In this document: one piece after another, positions 6,814 to 14,374 of the stretch
Position numbering within the stretch: position 1 is the stretch's first letter
How the letters are laid out: each line of letters opens with the position of its first letter
Origin: Halarcobacter anaerophilus
GTDB lineage: Bacteria > Campylobacterota > Campylobacteria > Campylobacterales > Arcobacteraceae
Direction: 5' to 3'
Length of the DNA: 64,000 nucleotides
NCBI RefSeq assembly: GCF_006459125.1
Contig: NZ_CP041070.1
Location: 186,001-250,000 of the forward strand
Notes under the pieces: generated by a model
Seen by the model: only the letters and a program-made list of their open reading frames with translations
What the model was told of the DNA's origin: nothing
The model's database searches: none
Translations under genes and position numbers: made by a program

Positions 6814-6890
6814 GCGTCTGTGGCTCAACTGGATAGAGCGCCGGGTTTCGGCCCCGGTGGTTGTGGGTTCGAATCCTACCAGGCGTGCCA
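6814..6890 (+). tRNA. tRNA-Arg (anticodon UCG)
   Basis: A 77-nt cloverleaf with encoded CCA. The acceptor arm GCGTCTG pairs with CAGGCGT (two G-U pairs). The D-arm reads GGCTCAACTGGATAGAGC. The anticodon stem CCGGG/CCCGG closes the loop TTTCGGC, giving anticodon TCG (reads CGA). The T-arm contains GGTTCGAATCC with its stem closed by GTGGG/CCTAC. The discriminator is G. Its 3' end is the left border of an AT-rich island and a degraded copy of it lies at 13404-13420. Confidence 0.95.
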
Positions 6891-6959: not shown

Positions 6960-8273
6960 TCAATATTTTGAATTAATATTTTGTAGTGTACTGAATGATT
7001 CAGAATTAAATTTTTTTTTAGTATCCATTTTGGAAAATAGAGAACTTATAGGTTTCCCATTAATTTTAATGTAATCATCCCATTGTATATTTGAGTAAAA
7101 AAGAAAAGAAAGAAATACAATGACGAAAATCATTGTATTTAATTTTATCGTCCAATTAAATCGATCTTTTATAGAAAAAGTTAATTTTTCAAGACTAGCT
7201 AAAGTTGATTCCACTGAATTATATAATTTATTTACTTCTTTACATTCCTCTTTTTTTGATTCAATTTCTTTTGATAATGCATTTAATATATCTCGTTGTA
7301 TAACGGAAAACTTATATAAGATAAGACAAAAAATAGACATACCAAGAAGTATAATGAAATTTTTTGCTTGAGTTTGTGAACTCATTTGACCTAAACTAAC
7401 AATAAATGCAATAGGAAGAAATATTATTTTACTATTTACATCACTTAAAAGTGTATTTAGTTTTGAAAAATATTCTTTTAATGCTTTATTTGCATCTTCT
7501 TTTAGCTTTGCAGGATCAAGTGAATTTATATAAGCTCTGTGATGAATTTGGTATTCATCATAAACTTTTGATAGCAAAGGAAAAATTTCATTAATATTGA
7601 TTTGTTTCTTATCCTTAGATAAAGTATCTTCTAACGCATTAATTAAAAAAATTTTATTTATTCTTTTTTCTGCATTTACTAAAATTTCATCAGTAAATGT
7701 GTTAATAAGTTCATCAATATTTTTTATATTTTGAAAAATTAAAATATCTTTCTTATTATATAATGAATGTATAAATATCTTTCGCTTATCAAAAATAGTA
7801 TATTTATAGTCTGATAGTCCTTCTTTATCTTTATCTATTGATATTTGATTAATAATATTAAATAGTTGAGATATTTTTTCATATTGCATAATAAAATCTA
7901 GTTTTTTTTCTGTTGATAATGAGCTATATTTAAACTCATGAATATAGTAAAACTCAGATATATTATTAACTCTATTAACATTTAAAAATTCATCAAAATC
8001 TTTAAAAATAAAATATTTGTATACTTTTCTTAAGTAGGAAATACTTAATTGAAGGCTATAAGTTTTATTTATTTCTATACTTGTAAGATTACAGTTAGTA
8101 TTATTAATTTTAATTTCTTTTAAAATAGAATTCTCATCAAAGTCTTGCAAAAGTGAAATATAATCAGATTTTTCAATTTTTATATCTATAGAAATGTCTT
8201 GTCCTTCATTAACAAAATCTATATTATTATCTTTGTTTATAATCAAATCATCAATTAATTTCATAATATTCAT
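6960..8273 (-). CDS. Coiled-coil membrane protein, partner of the NdpA-like gene; unknown function
   Basis: About 437 residues, not recognised. The first 280 residues are soluble, charged and rich in Asn/Lys/Ile. Two membrane spans follow close together (around IIFLPIAFIVSLGQ and FIILLGMSIFCLILY). A roughly 45-residue acidic coiled-coil (KEIESKKEECKEVNKLYNSVE) leads to a third span (MIFVIVFLSFLFY) and a short tail. I prefer ATG 8273, which follows the upstream stop by one base (TAAAATG) and has a GAAGAAG purine run ahead of it. A TTG at 8291 would overlap the upstream gene. The tight coupling to the NdpA-like gene implies a joint function. The topology (cytosolic sensor plus membrane effector) resembles membrane-acting defence effectors, but that is only inference. 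Confidence 0.7.
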   Translation of the reverse strand: MNIMKLIDDLIINKDNNIDFVNEGQDISIDIKIEKSDYISLLQDFDENSILKEIKINNTNCNLTSIEINKTYSLQLSISYLRKVYKYFIFKDFDEFLNVNRVNNISEFYYIHEFKYSSLSTEKKLDFIMQYEKISQLFNIINQISIDKDKEGLSDYKYTIFDKRKIFIHSLYNKKDILIFQNIKNIDELINTFTDEILVNAEKRINKIFLINALEDTLSKDKKQININEIFPLLSKVYDEYQIHHRAYINSLDPAKLKEDANKALKEYFSKLNTLLSDVNSKIIFLPIAFIVSLGQMSSQTQAKNFIILLGMSIFCLILYKFSVIQRDILNALSKEIESKKEECKEVNKLYNSVESTLASLEKLTFSIKDRFNWTIKLNTMIFVIVFLSFLFYSNIQWDDYIKINGKPISSLFSKMDTKKKFNSESFSTLQNINSKY

Positions 8274-8274
8274 T

Positions 8275-9291
8275 TTACAATTCTTCTTCAATCACTTGTT
8301 TTAATTTATCATCAATCTTTATAATCAATTTATCCTTATTTTCTGATAAATAAATATCTCCATCATCATATAGTTTTCTTTGAAAACTTAATTTTATTCC
8401 CTTTCCTGTATATTTGAACAGTTCAAGTTTTTTTATCTCTGATCGGTTAATGCTTTCAATTGTATTACTTAATTCAATTTGATTTTCATTGATATAATCA
8501 AAAAAACCTTTTGGATTGTCAGGATCTATAAAGTTTGATACAGATTCCATTGTTAAAGGCTCTTTATTTTTTATCTTTTCATCACATAAATTATATATTC
8601 TCATTTGCAAAGATTGAATCTTTTCTTCATCAAAAGTTTCTTTTAGATAATTATTTAATGTAGACACAAATAATTTTGTTGTCTCTTTTGAACTCTCTTT
8701 CTTTTCATCTGCACCCATAAAATCAACAAAGTATTCACTAACATCTTTAACTCCTTTCATAAAAGAAAGATATTTACGTTCTTCGTCACTTGAATATGAA
8801 TCAATGTTAATAAAACCTGCCATGGCTATTTGATCTGTATTTAGTTCATTTATCATTTTAATTACTAAACTTGAATCATTTGCAGTAAATCCAAATTTTT
8901 TATTTAGTAAAACAATCATTATAAATCTATCTCTCATTTTATAATCTGCTACAATTAAATAACCACCTGTTGACTGTGGTTTTTTATTCATTTCATCTGT
9001 TAAATGTTGTGCAGCTACTTGAGAAAAATCTAGAAAAGATTCATCACTAGGTAGTGTTATATATTTATCAATTAGTCTTTTAAATGTAGGCTCTGGTCGT
9101 TCTTTAAATTGTCCATATTCTTTAGTTGTTCTTTTGTGATAAGAAAAAGAAACTGTTTGTGCAAACTTCTCTATATCTTCATCTGATATGTCGAGTAAAG
9201 CTTTTCTTTCTTTAACTTCACCATCTTTTACACCTTGTGTTTTATTAATCCTATGTAATACAATTTTGTTTAGAATAAAACTTTTTTCCAT
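8275..9291 (-). CDS. NdpA/YejK-family nucleoid-associated protein
   Basis: A 338-residue protein with the signature of the 37-kDa nucleoid-associated family (YejK/NdpA). The key block is RKYLSFMKGVKDVSEYFVDFMGADE at about 171-195, closely like the YejK RYLSFxKG...FFMDFLGA motif. It is preceded by QVAAQHLTDEMNK and followed by helical segments. Housekeeping YejK binds the nucleoid, but this copy sits in an AT-rich island and is translationally linked to a membrane protein, so it is probably an accessory paralogue rather than a chromosomal architect. It has a strong AGGAGA site before ATG 9291 and is divergent from the Septu-like operon across 152 nt of very AT-rich DNA. The specific role is unknown. 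Confidence 0.8.
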   Translation of the reverse strand: MEKSFILNKIVLHRINKTQGVKDGEVKERKALLDISDEDIEKFAQTVSFSYHKRTTKEYGQFKERPEPTFKRLIDKYITLPSDESFLDFSQVAAQHLTDEMNKKPQSTGGYLIVADYKMRDRFIMIVLLNKKFGFTANDSSLVIKMINELNTDQIAMAGFINIDSYSSDEERKYLSFMKGVKDVSEYFVDFMGADEKKESSKETTKLFVSTLNNYLKETFDEEKIQSLQMRIYNLCDEKIKNKEPLTMESVSNFIDPDNPKGFFDYINENQIELSNTIESINRSEIKKLELFKYTGKGIKLSFQRKLYDDGDIYLSENKDKLIIKIDDKLKQVIEEEL

Positions 9292-9443: not shown

Positions 9444-12179
9444 TTGAGATTATTATTTATATATTTTTATGAGAATAAAGGACCTTTCCCAAAAGGTACA
9501 ATTATACAGTTTAGTAAAAAATATCATATATCACAGTCTAAAAAGAATGAATTTAATTTTAATATGAAGAAAAATCAAAATTTTGATGAGAATTTTTATT
9601 CAAATAATATAGATATTGGTGTAATAATTGGAGAAAATGGATCAGGAAAAAGTATTTTGGTTAATTCAATTAGAGATAAGAATAATAATTATTCTCTAAT
9701 CGTTTTTGAATCTAATGAAGGAAATTTTTATATTTCAAAAGATGAATTGAAAGTCCACATTAATGATAAATTACTAAAGAATAAACGAGACTTTGAATAT
9801 ATTTATTATTGTCCAATTATAGATATATTTGATGATGATTTAAATCCAAAATATAACATTTCAAATCGAAAATTAATGAAGGATGCAGAAGATAAAGGTT
9901 GTGATTTAAATTCAGCTTTAAAAGAAATAGAAAATGATGATTTAAAAAAATATTTTAAATATAATAGGAATAATAATGTTTCAATTAACTCATTAAAATT
10001 AAAGGCAAGTGATGTATTCTTTGATCAATTTTATTATGATATAGAGAAAAATGCAATTGAATTATTTAAAATTATGACTGCTGATTTTGATAAAAGAGTA
10101 TTTTTGAAAATAATAGATTGCAGTAATAGTAATTTTTTAAAGCATATAATTAATGAAGAAATATATAATAGTTATATGGAATTTGAAAAGTTATATGCCA
10201 TATTTGAAAATGATTTTAAATTATGTAAAAAATACTTTAAAAGCTTAGAATATTTAATTAATAAAAAGTTTTTTAGGCCTTCTTTATTTGAATATGAAGA
10301 TTTAATAAAAGAATCTTTTATTCTAATTACTAAAGAATTAAATGAGAATAAAATGGAAAGAGTAATTTCTCATGATGGTAGTTTTGATAAATATTATTTA
10401 GAAAAGTTTTTTAAAAATCAAGTTTCAGAAATTTTAGAATCTAGTACGCAAATATTTCTTGATTATTTAAAAAGTACCCCTCAAGGAAACTATGAGAAAG
10501 TTTTTTCTGAACTAGAAAATAACTCTGAATTTCTTTTATTTATAAAAATTATATATTTACTTGAATTGTTTAATTACATTTTGGGATATTTAGATAGAAA
10601 TTCTTTATTTGAAAGGAGGGGGTATAATTTTATAAATATTAGATTATTAAATCGTGAGAAGAGATCTTTTAAAGAATCAGTAGAAATGTTTCTTTTGCCA
10701 AGGTTATTTGTAAGAATTCACAATTTATTAAAATTAGAAAAAATACATTTTTATAATTTTAAATTAGAAGATTATAAAAAAATAGTTAATTCCTTAGTTG
10801 AAGATAACTTGATAGAGAATTACAATAATTTTTATAATATAAATGATAAGCAAATACAAACTGTAGTAAATTCTTTAATAGAGAATTATACGTATGAAGT
10901 AATAAATAATAAAAAAATAAATTTAGAATTAAAAAAGATTGTATTTGTTAATTCTTTTTATAAATTATTTGATAATCAAAATGAATATAAAAAATTAATT
11001 TTAGTTTTAAATTTATTAAAAGTATTTATGAAGGTAAATGATACAGAAGAATTAGTTGATTTCTTTGATAAAAATTCAAAAAAAAATATAGAAGAATATT
11101 TTATAATTGAGGAATTTGATAATGAGTTTATCAATAAAATTGATGAAAATTGTATTATTTATTTGGATGAAAATATAGATGTTTTTTTTAAATATAATAA
11201 AAAATTATTAGAGTACGAATTTGATTTTTTTGAATTAGAATTAAATCCTCCCCTCTCTTCAGGACAAAAAGCAATATTATTTATTTTTGCAAGAATAAAT
11301 GATGCGATACAAAATATTGATTCTAGTAAAGATATTATTATTATATTAGATGAAGCAGATTTAAAACTTCATTTAGAATGGCAAAGAAAATTAGTATATG
11401 ATTTGATAAATTTTTTGAATAGTTATAGTAATAATTTTTATATACTATATGCTACACATTCACCAATGATCTTATCTGATATAACAGATGATAGGGTAGT
11501 CTTTCTAAAAAAAGAAAAGAAAAGAATTATTGAAAATGATAAAGAAGTTGAAATAGAATATAGTGAAAATATTTCAACAAATATTAATAATAAAAAGAGA
11601 ACTTTTGGTGCAAATATTTATGATCTTTATCATGATAGTTTTTTTATGGAACAATTCATGGGAGAGTTTGCTCAAAATAAAATAAATGAGCTTATTGATA
11701 TTATCAATCTTTATAAGATCATAGAAGAGTTTGAAAAAACAAGAGCAAATAGTAAAATGATTCTAAAGTTTATTAAGCCAATTATTAATAAATATAATTT
11801 AAAGAAGATTATTTCAACTTATAGAAAAAGGTATTACAAAGAGAATCGTATAAAGTCTGATACATGGAAAGATATATCTTTTGAAATTTTTATAAAAGTA
11901 TATGATGATAAGAAGTATTTAGATAAAGTTAAAAACGATATTATAAAGAGTAAAGAAATAATTCAAAATACAATTGAATTTATTGGTGAACCTATATTAA
12001 GAAATGAATTGTTAGATCTTGTTAAGATAATTGGGGATGAAGATAATATTCAAGATATTATAGATAAGTTGAGAGATTTACCTTCTGAAGAAATTGAAAA
12101 TGAATTGATTAAATATGATAGAGAACAACAGATTGAAATATGGAAAAAACTTTATAAAATAAAAGATAGTCAATGGTAA
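9444..12179 (+). CDS. Septu-like (PtuA-type) SMC/ABC-class ATPase, unusually long
   Basis: A 911-residue ATPase of the RecF/SMC-like AAA_15/21 group. Walker A GENGSGKS is at 63-70, the ABC-signature-like LSSGQKA near 603, Walker B IIIILDEADLKLHLEWQ near 629-645 and the switch ATHSP near 670. A C-terminal GANIYDLYHDSFFMEQ segment follows, as seen in Septu PtuA-type ATPases. About 530 residues of Lys/Asn/Ile-rich helical sequence separate Walker A from the signature, longer than usual. The start is a TTG at 9444 (MRLLFIYFYENKG) with a GAGAG run upstream. It overlaps the HNH gene by 7 nt, so the two are translationally coupled. There is no TOPRIM domain, which argues against OLD nuclease. Confidence 0.8.
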   Translation: MRLLFIYFYENKGPFPKGTIIQFSKKYHISQSKKNEFNFNMKKNQNFDENFYSNNIDIGVIIGENGSGKSILVNSIRDKNNNYSLIVFESNEGNFYISKDELKVHINDKLLKNKRDFEYIYYCPIIDIFDDDLNPKYNISNRKLMKDAEDKGCDLNSALKEIENDDLKKYFKYNRNNNVSINSLKLKASDVFFDQFYYDIEKNAIELFKIMTADFDKRVFLKIIDCSNSNFLKHIINEEIYNSYMEFEKLYAIFENDFKLCKKYFKSLEYLINKKFFRPSLFEYEDLIKESFILITKELNENKMERVISHDGSFDKYYLEKFFKNQVSEILESSTQIFLDYLKSTPQGNYEKVFSELENNSEFLLFIKIIYLLELFNYILGYLDRNSLFERRGYNFINIRLLNREKRSFKESVEMFLLPRLFVRIHNLLKLEKIHFYNFKLEDYKKIVNSLVEDNLIENYNNFYNINDKQIQTVVNSLIENYTYEVINNKKINLELKKIVFVNSFYKLFDNQNEYKKLILVLNLLKVFMKVNDTEELVDFFDKNSKKNIEEYFIIEEFDNEFINKIDENCIIYLDENIDVFFKYNKKLLEYEFDFFELELNPPLSSGQKAILFIFARINDAIQNIDSSKDIIIILDEADLKLHLEWQRKLVYDLINFLNSYSNNFYILYATHSPMILSDITDDRVVFLKKEKKRIIENDKEVEIEYSENISTNINNKKRTFGANIYDLYHDSFFMEQFMGEFAQNKINELIDIINLYKIIEEFEKTRANSKMILKFIKPIINKYNLKKIISTYRKRYYKENRIKSDTWKDISFEIFIKVYDDKKYLDKVKNDIIKSKEIIQNTIEFIGEPILRNELLDLVKIIGDEDNIQDIIDKLRDLPSEEIENELIKYDREQQIEIWKKLYKIKDSQW

Positions 12180-13249
12180 ATGTAGATAATTCTTTCAAAA
12201 ATAGAATATTCATTGATGAATTTGATATAGATAATAGAGCTTTATTTGATAGTATATTTAATTTAAAAAAGCTAGTTGAATCAAAAATAGAAAAGGTTGA
12301 CCTTGAAAATGGCGATTATTCTATTTTGGATGAGTTTAGAGGTTATGATAATGCAAAGTATTTATCCATTTATAGATATAGAAACGTAGTTATAGATAAA
12401 ATTAATGAGTTATTGAGAGATAGATCTATACATCCAGATTTAAAAACAGAATTAAGAGATATTAAAGATAATATATATTTAATTTTAATTGGTAGTTTTG
12501 AAAGAATGAAGCTTTATTTAGATTCTAAAATTGAAACTTTACTGGTACATAGGACTGATGATGAAAAACATGACAGTTTTAAAAAATATCAAACTATATT
12601 TGAAGATTTATACAAAAATGAATTAAGTAGTTCAACTTTTAAAAAATCATTTTTTGAAATGTTTAAAAATGTACATGTATGTCCATATTGTAATAGAAAT
12701 TTTATTAATCCTATTTATAAAAAAAAACAGTTAGGAAAAGATTATAAAAAATGGTCACCGGATATAGAACATTTCTATCCTAAATCAATTTATCCTTTTC
12801 TATCTCTTAGTATTTCGAACTTGCTACCTTCATGTACTTTTTGTAATAAAATAAAAAGTAATTATGATACATACAATAAATGTAAAAGTCCTTATCAAAT
12901 AAAAAGTGATGATATAAAATTTAAGTTTGCTCCTTTAAGTAATGAAAAACATGTAATATTGTTAGAAAGTAAAGATAATATTAAAAATACAGAATTATTT
13001 AATTTAGATGGTTTGTATGATAAAGTTCATAGTCAATATGTAAATGATATTTTTTTAGAAATGAAAAAACATCCTATAGAAAATAGGAGATATTTAAAAA
13101 AATTTTTTTCGTTAAGTATTGATTCACAAGATAAAATATATAAACAAAAATTTTGTAATTATTATAAAGAAATAGATTTTAATAAACAACCATTGTCAAA
13201 AATGATTAAAGAATTGTTTTTTCATATTAAGGAAAATGAGCTTAAGTAA
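12173..13249 (+). CDS. Septu-like HNH endonuclease (PtuB type)
   Basis: A 358-residue protein with an HNH/zinc-finger nuclease core. C170-P-Y-C173 forms the first zinc half, DIEH (H200 as the general base, followed by FYPKS) the catalytic strand, and NLLPSC with C221-T-F-C224-N the second half plus the Asn. This spacing (CxYCN ... D-x-(D/E)HFYPKS ... NLLPSCxxCNxxK) is that of HNH proteins paired with ATPases in Septu and in some retron systems. Residues 1-160 are helical and probably contact the ATPase. ATG 12173 lies inside the end of the ATPase gene. In Septu the pair senses phage infection and degrades nucleic acid; that is family knowledge, not shown here. No reverse transcriptase or msr/msd RNA was seen nearby. 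Confidence 0.82.
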   Translation: MVNVDNSFKNRIFIDEFDIDNRALFDSIFNLKKLVESKIEKVDLENGDYSILDEFRGYDNAKYLSIYRYRNVVIDKINELLRDRSIHPDLKTELRDIKDNIYLILIGSFERMKLYLDSKIETLLVHRTDDEKHDSFKKYQTIFEDLYKNELSSSTFKKSFFEMFKNVHVCPYCNRNFINPIYKKKQLGKDYKKWSPDIEHFYPKSIYPFLSLSISNLLPSCTFCNKIKSNYDTYNKCKSPYQIKSDDIKFKFAPLSNEKHVILLESKDNIKNTELFNLDGLYDKVHSQYVNDIFLEMKKHPIENRRYLKKFFSLSIDSQDKIYKQKFCNYYKEIDFNKQPLSKMIKELFFHIKENELK

Positions 13250-13651
13250 AATTCTAATATAGTATTCTTTTAAATGAGTATTTTACTTTCTATAATTGGT
13301 TGTTCAAAATTTGTGCTAAAAACAGCTATAAATAATATTTATTTAAAGAAAGGAAATGCTTTTTTATGGCTACTTATGCTTTTTAAAACTACTTTATGAA
13401 TTTCCTACAGGCGTGCTATTCACCTATATTTAAGCTTTTACATCACATTATCTTACTCTTGTACCAATTTAGTGTCTATAAGTATCTCAATTTTTCCAAA
13501 GCAACTATCACTTTCCAAAATAATAATTAAAAATAAAAGAAATCCCACAAAATTAATAACAAGCAGAACTTCATTAAATAGCAAGTTCATACAATACTTT
13601 TTTATCCAAATAATATAAACTTCTCCAAAATTTATATTAAAAGGTAAAAAA
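13250..13651. other. Intergenic stretch at the right end of the island
   Basis: About 400 nt without a convincing gene. It holds the degraded tRNA 3'-end repeat (13404-13420) and AT-rich sequence. A 25-codon ORF from 13356 (MLFYGYLCFLKLLYEF...) and a hydrophobic minus-strand ORF ending at 13453 are both possible but unsupported: their initiation regions are poor and the latter's longest form runs into the racemase gene. The racemase promoter should lie in the last 100 nt. Confidence 0.5.
13404..13420 (+). repeat. Degraded copy of tRNA-Arg 3' end (attR-like)
   Basis: CCTACAGGCGTGCTATT repeats tRNA positions 6875-6892 with one deleted C and one C-to-T change. The four bases GAAT also precede both copies, with two extra T here. 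Same orientation and location at the far border of the AT-rich block fit the second attachment site of a tRNA-integrated element. Confidence 0.5.
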
Positions 13652-14374
13652 ATGCAAAGACCTATAAAAATGAAAACAATCGGTATTTTAGGTGGGATGA
13701 GCAATGAAGCTACGGCAGAGTATTATAAAATGATTAATGCAGAGGTAAATAAGTGTTTAGGCAATTGGGATATTGCGGAAATACTTCTTTATAGTGTTAA
13801 CTTTGGAAATATTGAATATTTTGTTCGTAATAAAAAATGGGATGATGCAAAAAAATATTTAATGCATAACGCAGCCAATGTTGAAAAAGGCGGAGCAGAT
13901 TTTCTTATCTGTGTTTCTAACACAATGCATAAGGTTTTGGATGATATTTCAGATACGATTAAAATTCCGTTTATTCATATTGTTGATCCTACGGCAGAAG
14001 CTATTAAAAAAGCAGGTTTAAAAAAAGTAGGTCTTCTAGGAACAAAAGCAACAATGGAATCTAGCTTTTTTAAAAATAGGTTTAAAAACAAACATAATAT
14101 CGAGCTTATAATTCCTAATGAAGAAGAGCAAAAGATAATTGATGAAATCATCTTTAACGAACTGGTTAAAGGAATTATTTCAGAAGATTCAAGAAGAAAA
14201 TATATTGAAATATCTAAAAAAATGAATCAACAAGGTGCCCAAGGGCTTATTTTGGGTTGTACTGAAATTTTTCTATTGTTAAGACAGTCGGATATTCCAA
14301 ACTTGCCTATGTTTAATACTACGGAACTTCATGTTAAAGCAGCCGTAAAATTTGCGTTAAGTAGTGATTCTTAA
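13652..14374 (+). CDS. Aspartate/glutamate racemase family protein (YgeA/RacX-like)
   Basis: A 240-residue racemase-fold protein with IGILGGMSNEATAEYY at the N-terminus, LICVSNTMHKV at 85-95 and LGCTEIFLLL at 201-210. Members use two opposed catalytic residues. The second is the normal cysteine (C203 in GCTE). At the first site the expected Cys, or the Thr of E. coli YgeA, is Ser89 in VSNTMH, so activity may be asymmetric as in YgeA. ATG 13652 is supported by an AAGG 7 nt upstream; an internal ATG at 13670 gives a form more like shorter homologues. It is convergent with the DUF4105 gene, ending in a 4-nt overlap. The likely role is making a D-amino acid. Confidence 0.85.
   Translation: MQRPIKMKTIGILGGMSNEATAEYYKMINAEVNKCLGNWDIAEILLYSVNFGNIEYFVRNKKWDDAKKYLMHNAANVEKGGADFLICVSNTMHKVLDDISDTIKIPFIHIVDPTAEAIKKAGLKKVGLLGTKATMESSFFKNRFKNKHNIELIIPNEEEQKIIDEIIFNELVKGIISEDSRRKYIEISKKMNQQGAQGLILGCTEIFLLLRQSDIPNLPMFNTTELHVKAAVKFALSSDS

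What the first reader, a model, noticed from the sequence alone, without database searches (positions are those of the whole stretch)
9444..13249. Septu-like ATPase-HNH pair with an unusually long ATPase
Seen: Walker A (63-70), LSSGQKA, Walker B and ATHSP in a 911-residue protein, followed with a 7-nt overlap by an HNH protein with CxxC...DIEH...CxxC. Known: this pairing defines Septu (PtuA/PtuB). Unusual: about 530 residues lie between Walker A and the signature. This insert could be a sensor or oligomerisation module not present in described Septu ATPases. Start codon is TTG, so expression may be kept low.
Basis: partly seen in the sequence, partly recalled or inferred. Interest (0 to 1): 0.75.

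Follow-up and report, generated by a model that had tools for sequence, protein, structure and literature searches.

The report
Septu-like defence pair, stretched ATPase
A two-gene bacterial module, an ATPase and a nuclease that very probably stop phages by the same broad principle as the known Septu system, belongs to a catalogued but untested sister family (PDC-M62) and carries an unusually long, fast-changing stretch in its ATPase.

Summary
Both genes score best as PADLOC's candidate system PDC-M62 (3e-45, 2e-32), far above Septu PtuA/PtuB (3e-14, 3e-11), and trees separate PDC-M62-type pairs from neighbouring PtuAB. Yet the HNH model folds like PtuB (Z 11.6), so the pair is Septu-like, and one survey found DefenseFinder calling such pairs Septu. 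The long insert is no lone oddity: the window protein, five intact relatives and one interrupted one form a fully supported clade in Campylobacterota (6 of 104 family genomes). Walker A-signature spacing is 232-396 residues in ordinary relatives, 522-552 here. The insert is predicted helical (low confidence), has no detectable relatives and changes fastest, but shorter inserts in the family do too, so a special sensor role is unproven. The pair has 20-21% GC against 30% around it and lies downstream of a tRNA-Arg gene that is an integration hotspot in the genus. Verdict: a long-insert variant of a known kind; modest interest.

The parts
9444..12179 (+). PDC-M62A-type ABC ATPase, 911 aa, TTG start
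   Evidence: PADLOC PDC-M62A 3e-45; long-type clade 100/100
9630..9653 (+). Walker A GENGSGKS, residues 63-70
9924..11213 (+). long variable insert, about residues 161-590; mostly helical in a low-confidence model; no CxxC zinc hook
   Evidence: (pLDDT mostly 30-60)
11253..11273 (+). ABC signature LSSGQKA, residues 604-610
11334..11360 (+). Walker B IIIILDEAD, residues 631-639
11451..11465 (+). ATHSP switch-histidine motif, residues 670-674
12173..13249 (+). PDC-M62B-type HNH nuclease, 358 aa, PtuB-like fold, 7-nt overlap with the ATPase gene
   Evidence: PDC-M62B 1.9e-32; model pLDDT 82; Z 11.6 to E. coli Septu PtuB 8eea_G
12680..12847 (+). HNH core C170xxC173 ... DIEH200 ... N216 ... C221xxC224-N225
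   Evidence: invariant in the alignment of 32
6814..6890 (+). tRNA-Arg(TCG), integration hotspot of the genus, at the left edge of the low-GC stretch
13403..13421 (+). imperfect 19-bp copy of the tRNA-Arg 3' end, possible right boundary of the island
   Evidence: as good in 3 of 200 shuffles, so only suggestive

Best explanation
A horizontally moving two-gene anti-phage module of the PDC-M62 family, the Septu-like sister group of PtuAB. Shown here: an ABC/SMC-type ATPase gene overlapping that of a PtuB-fold HNH protein with all metal- and catalysis-type residues conserved, kept together as a pair in scattered genomic contexts without a shared third gene. Inferred from Septu and retron Ec78/Eco7: the ATPase oligomerises through its heads, binds the HNH protein and holds it inactive in the healthy cell; a phage-caused signal (altered nucleotide state or a phage product) activates the HNH, which cleaves a vital nucleic acid (tRNA or nicked DNA in the studied relatives) and aborts infection. 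The long helical insert between the two halves of the head is most likely an arm that reads the signal or shapes the oligomer; it is an enlarged version of a region that varies throughout the family.
For: PADLOC profiles for both genes; PtuB fold, with the nine best solved matches all from Septu or retron I-A complexes and the next at Z 5.1; ATPase head matches led by retron I-A and Septu PtuA; an HNH gene of the same family beside the ATPase in all 15 short and all long relatives first checked; gene overlaps of 4-26 nt in the intact long-type pairs; scattered distribution, 6 of 104 family genomes, with no shared third gene; GC 20-21% against about 30%; a GajB-like helicase beside one relative. 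Walker A/B and HNH mutations abolish immunity by Septu EcB88, which cleaves tRNA-Tyr (PMC13096335); retron-Eco7 PtuAB degrades tRNA-Tyr (PMC11555353).
Against: No member of PDC-M62 is known to me to have been tested against phage, and the one paper found calls the PDC systems unpublished candidates. The long type scores only 139-172 bits on PDC-M62A profiles against 325-440 for five short relatives, so it sits at the family's edge. The ATPase model is poor (pLDDT 55), so nothing firm can be said about the insert's fold. The insert's raised dN/dS (0.5-0.9) is matched by short inserts of the family (0.7-1.1), so it does not single out a sensor.
Confidence: 0.75

Rival explanations
1. A true Septu (PtuA1/PtuB1) system with an enlarged PtuA.
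For: PtuB fold; significant PtuA1/PtuB1 profile hits; DefenseFinder counted PDC-M62 pairs as Septu in one survey.
Against: PDC-M62 profiles beat PtuA1 by about 100 bits and PtuB1 by about 70 bits; neighbouring PtuA and PtuB proteins fall outside with 100/100 and 100/97 support (though the PtuB branches are long).
Confidence: 0.12
2. The long insert is a scaffold or spacer for oligomerisation, drifting under weak constraint, and carries no sensing function (a rival for the insert's role, compatible with the rest of the best explanation).
For: Low identity (12-26% to the intact long relatives) with few conserved positions; dN/dS below 1 overall and similar to shorter inserts; predicted all-helical; spacing varies widely in the family.
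Against: A 388-434 aa insert is kept in all six intact long-type members, which pure drift would not favour.
Confidence: 0.4
3. A non-defence DNA-repair or stress module, or a decaying gene pair.
For: No functional test exists; one relative (Sulfurimonas MAG) has an interrupted ATPase frame.
Against: Both frames intact in six genomes; purifying selection on head and HNH core (dN/dS about 0.18-0.34); scattered presence and island context.
Confidence: 0.08
4. An orphan retron I-A effector pair that lost its reverse transcriptase.
For: Retron Ec78/Ec83 PtuAB are among the best structural matches.
Against: No reverse transcriptase was recognised among the neighbouring proteins scanned; no third gene is shared by the long-type loci; retron PtuA model NF041760 scores 37.7 against a cut-off of 500.
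Confidence: 0.03

Closest known systems
PDC-M62 (PADLOC candidate system, PDC-M62A + PDC-M62B)
   Same: Both genes hit these models best; same order, close spacing and motifs.
   Different: Lower profile scores than ordinary relatives; Walker A-signature spacing 522-552 against 232-396; HNH with an extra helical N-terminal part.
Septu (PtuA/PtuB; E. coli complex 8eea, PtuA 8ee4/8sux)
   Same: ABC ATPase plus HNH; PtuB fold at Z 11.6 over 201 residues; head matches to PtuA.
   Different: Separate in profile scores and trees; neighbouring PtuA proteins are 420-549 aa, PtuB 210-240 aa.
Retron I-A effectors PtuA/PtuB (Ec78/Eco7, Ec83)
   Same: Same two-protein effector architecture and fold.
   Different: No reverse transcriptase recognised nearby.
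PARIS AriA (and Gabija GajA) ABC ATPases
   Same: Related ABC heads among the matches; AriA is titled a sensory subunit in entry 8v49.
   Different: The partner here is an HNH protein, not AriB or GajB; profile scores are lower.

Membership tests
PDC-M62 | ATPase hits a PDC-M62A profile best | tested here: met
   PDLC04734 3e-45, 153 bits; PtuA1 at most 51 bits; same for four long-type relatives
PDC-M62 | Adjacent HNH hits a PDC-M62B profile best | tested here: met
   PDLC04743 1.9e-32, 111 bits; PtuB1 at most 42 bits
PDC-M62 | Passes PADLOC's own coverage and score thresholds | not testable with these tools
   Thresholds are not part of the library output; best stretch covers profile 211-564 of 597
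Septu (PtuAB) | ABC ATPase gene next to an HNH gene | tested here: met
Septu (PtuAB) | Pair groups with PtuA/PtuB rather than with another ATPase-HNH family | tested here: not met
   scores; five PtuA of the same order fall outside with 100/100 support
Septu (PtuAB) | HNH protein has the PtuB fold | tested here: met
   8eea_G Z 11.6, rmsd 3.8, 201 aligned; next non-PtuB match Z 5.1
Septu (PtuAB) | ATPase has the PtuA fold and hexamer interfaces | tested here: inconclusive
   PtuA chains lead (Z about 10) but the model has pLDDT 55
Septu (PtuAB) | Anti-phage activity needing Walker and HNH residues | not testable with these tools
   needs an experiment
Retron I-A | Reverse transcriptase and ncRNA beside the effectors | tested here: not met
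   no reverse transcriptase among the neighbouring proteins scanned; ncRNA not searched

The most novel reading that the evidence does not exclude
The 390-430 aa helical insert is a new, fast-evolving phage-recognition domain set into the ATPase head of a PDC-M62 system, so that this clade detects a phage product directly instead of responding to nucleotide state.
Probability: 0.2. Interest if true: 0.55.

Novelty: new variant of a known kind. Interest (0 to 1): 0.32.

Why it matters
How Septu-like ATPases sense infection is, as far as I know, open. This family offers natural size variants of one region (232 to 552 residues between Walker A and signature) on an otherwise conserved ATPase-HNH pair, which makes insert-swap experiments straightforward. 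It also warns that Septu counts in surveys mix at least two separable families.

Tried and rejected
Partner swapping: relative G363 has a long-type-like HNH (45% identity) but a different-looking ATPase (969 aa, an extra N-terminal region of about 290 aa, shorter insert). I suspected that the ATPase had been exchanged, but the tree does not reject G363 grouping with the long type (p-AU 0.51), so the claim is dropped. Positive selection on the insert: dN/dS 0.52-0.89 against 0.22-0.33 in the head, but short inserts behave alike (0.71-1.07 against 0.33-0.39), and dS is high in some pairs. Zinc-hook (RloC-like) insert: no CxxC. Insert homology: no profile match to short PDC-M62 or PtuA ATPases. 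Phage carriage: none in phages or viral contigs; plasmids hold only distant relatives. Exact att repeat: only a degenerate 19-bp copy, reached by 3 of 200 shuffles. Papers on the neighbouring NA37 pair were not found, and the NSMB paper on the PtuAB complex is not held.

Full report
Observation. The distance from Walker A to the signature is 533 residues. The TTG start is plausible, since the N-terminal sequence is shared by the relatives; one of them (G026) also starts with TTG and the other five with ATG. Nothing shows that the start codon lowers expression.

Family. PADLOC's candidate system PDC-M62 is the best match for both genes: ATPase 3e-45 (153 bits) against at most 51 bits for PtuA1; HNH 1.9e-32 (111 bits) against at most 42 bits for PtuB1. 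The ATPases and HNH proteins of the long relatives give the same ranking. A published survey of the Bacillus cereus group reports that PADLOC's PDC-M62 calls coincided with DefenseFinder's Septu in 203 cases and calls the PDC systems unpublished candidates (PMC11811056). I built trees with five PtuA/PtuB pairs from the same order. The PDC-M62-type ATPases and the PtuA proteins are separated with 100/100 support; the HNH tree says the same (100/97), though the PtuB branches are long. So by membership the pair belongs to PDC-M62, beside Septu on this sampling; by working parts it is Septu-like.

Structure. The HNH model (pLDDT 82) matches PtuB of the E. coli Septu complex (8eea_G, Z 11.6, rmsd 3.8, 201 residues). 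The next eight matches are HNH chains of retron I-A complexes, and the first other HNH enzyme comes at Z 5.1. The ATPase model is poor (pLDDT 55; the head partly 70-87, the insert mostly 30-60). Even so, its matches are led by retron I-A and Septu PtuA chains (Z about 10; the top Foldseek rows). In the model the insert is almost wholly helical, which I treat as a weak prediction.

The insert. Searching whole genomes gave five further intact long-type ATPases (823-888 aa), and the genome-contig scan added an interrupted one in a Sulfurimonas metagenome genome; all have the HNH gene beside them. Six of 104 genomes of the window's family carry the long-type HNH (492-618 bits; the rest at most about 140). 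The long-type ATPases form a clade with 100/100 support, on columns filled in at least 70% of rows. In shorter relatives the Walker A-signature spacing is 232-396 residues; in the long type it is 522-552. PDC-M62A profiles in PADLOC reach 746 positions and one PtuA profile 726. Length variation of this region is therefore a family habit, and the long type lies at its upper end.

Evolution of the insert. Identity to the intact long-type relatives is 39-50% in the first 160 residues, 12-26% in the insert and 60-67% in residues 591-760. dN/dS (simple counting method) over the insert is 0.52-0.89 in four pairs against 0.22-0.33 in residues 591-760. A control with short relatives gives 0.71-1.07 for their inserts and 0.33-0.39 for the same part of the head. 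The fast change is thus a property of the family's insert in general. It fits a surface facing phage partners but also a weakly constrained scaffold. Synonymous distances are high in some pairs and the genes are very AT-rich, so these ratios are rough.

Relative G363 has an HNH close to the long type, while its ATPase is 969 aa with an extra N-terminal region and a spacing of 374. I considered partner exchange, but the test does not reject a common clade.

Context. The pair has 20-21% GC, the divergent neighbours 21-26%, and genes to either side about 30%. To the left lies tRNA-Arg(TCG). In five genomes of the genus an exact or near-exact 46-50 bp copy of this tRNA's 3' end lies 12-48 kb downstream, and what follows the tRNA differs from genome to genome, so this is an integration hotspot. 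In the window only a degenerate 19-bp copy is found at 13403-13421, just beyond the HNH gene. The other long-type pairs sit in different surroundings with no third gene common to them; one lies beside a GajB-like helicase. No phage record or viral contig searched carries the long type.

Mechanism. Shown: conserved ATP-binding and HNH motifs, PtuB fold, overlapping genes, scattered distribution, purifying selection on head and HNH core. Inferred: an ATPase oligomer that restrains the HNH enzyme until infection, followed by cleavage of tRNA or DNA and abortive infection. The relatives for which this is known are Septu EcB88, which cleaves the variable loop of tRNA-Tyr and needs Walker and HNH residues (PMC13096335), and retron-Eco7 PtuAB, which degrades tRNA-Tyr; an E. 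coli Septu was reported to act on nicked DNA (PMC11555353). The target here is unknown.

Verdict. A sound observation, with a largely right but imprecise reading: a long-insert clade of the PDC-M62 (Septu-like) family. Moderately useful for studying how these ATPases sense infection; not a new kind of system.

Noticed in passing
window 6960-9291 (-): A second, divergently oriented candidate defence pair: a NA37/YejK-like protein (8e-51) and a 443-aa protein with two hydrophobic segments that weakly matches NCBIfam 'DS1_2 anti-phage protein' (5e-9). Distant relatives of the same two genes sit together in G043 (L129).
   Followed up: partly
window 6814-6890 and downstream: tRNA-Arg(TCG) is an integration hotspot in the genus: five relatives have an exact or near-exact 46-50 bp copy of its 3' end 12-48 kb downstream.
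   Followed up: partly
L127 6447-9356: A 969-aa ATPase of the same wider family with an extra N-terminal region of about 290 aa without a Pfam match, next to a long-type-like HNH.
   Followed up: partly
window 13652-14374: Asp/Glu racemase family gene that is an extra copy relative to the other genomes of the genus; normal GC.
   Followed up: no
L021 6001-9939: Sulfurimonas MAG copy of the pair with a 78% identical HNH but an interrupted ATPase frame; assembly error or decay not decided.
   Followed up: no
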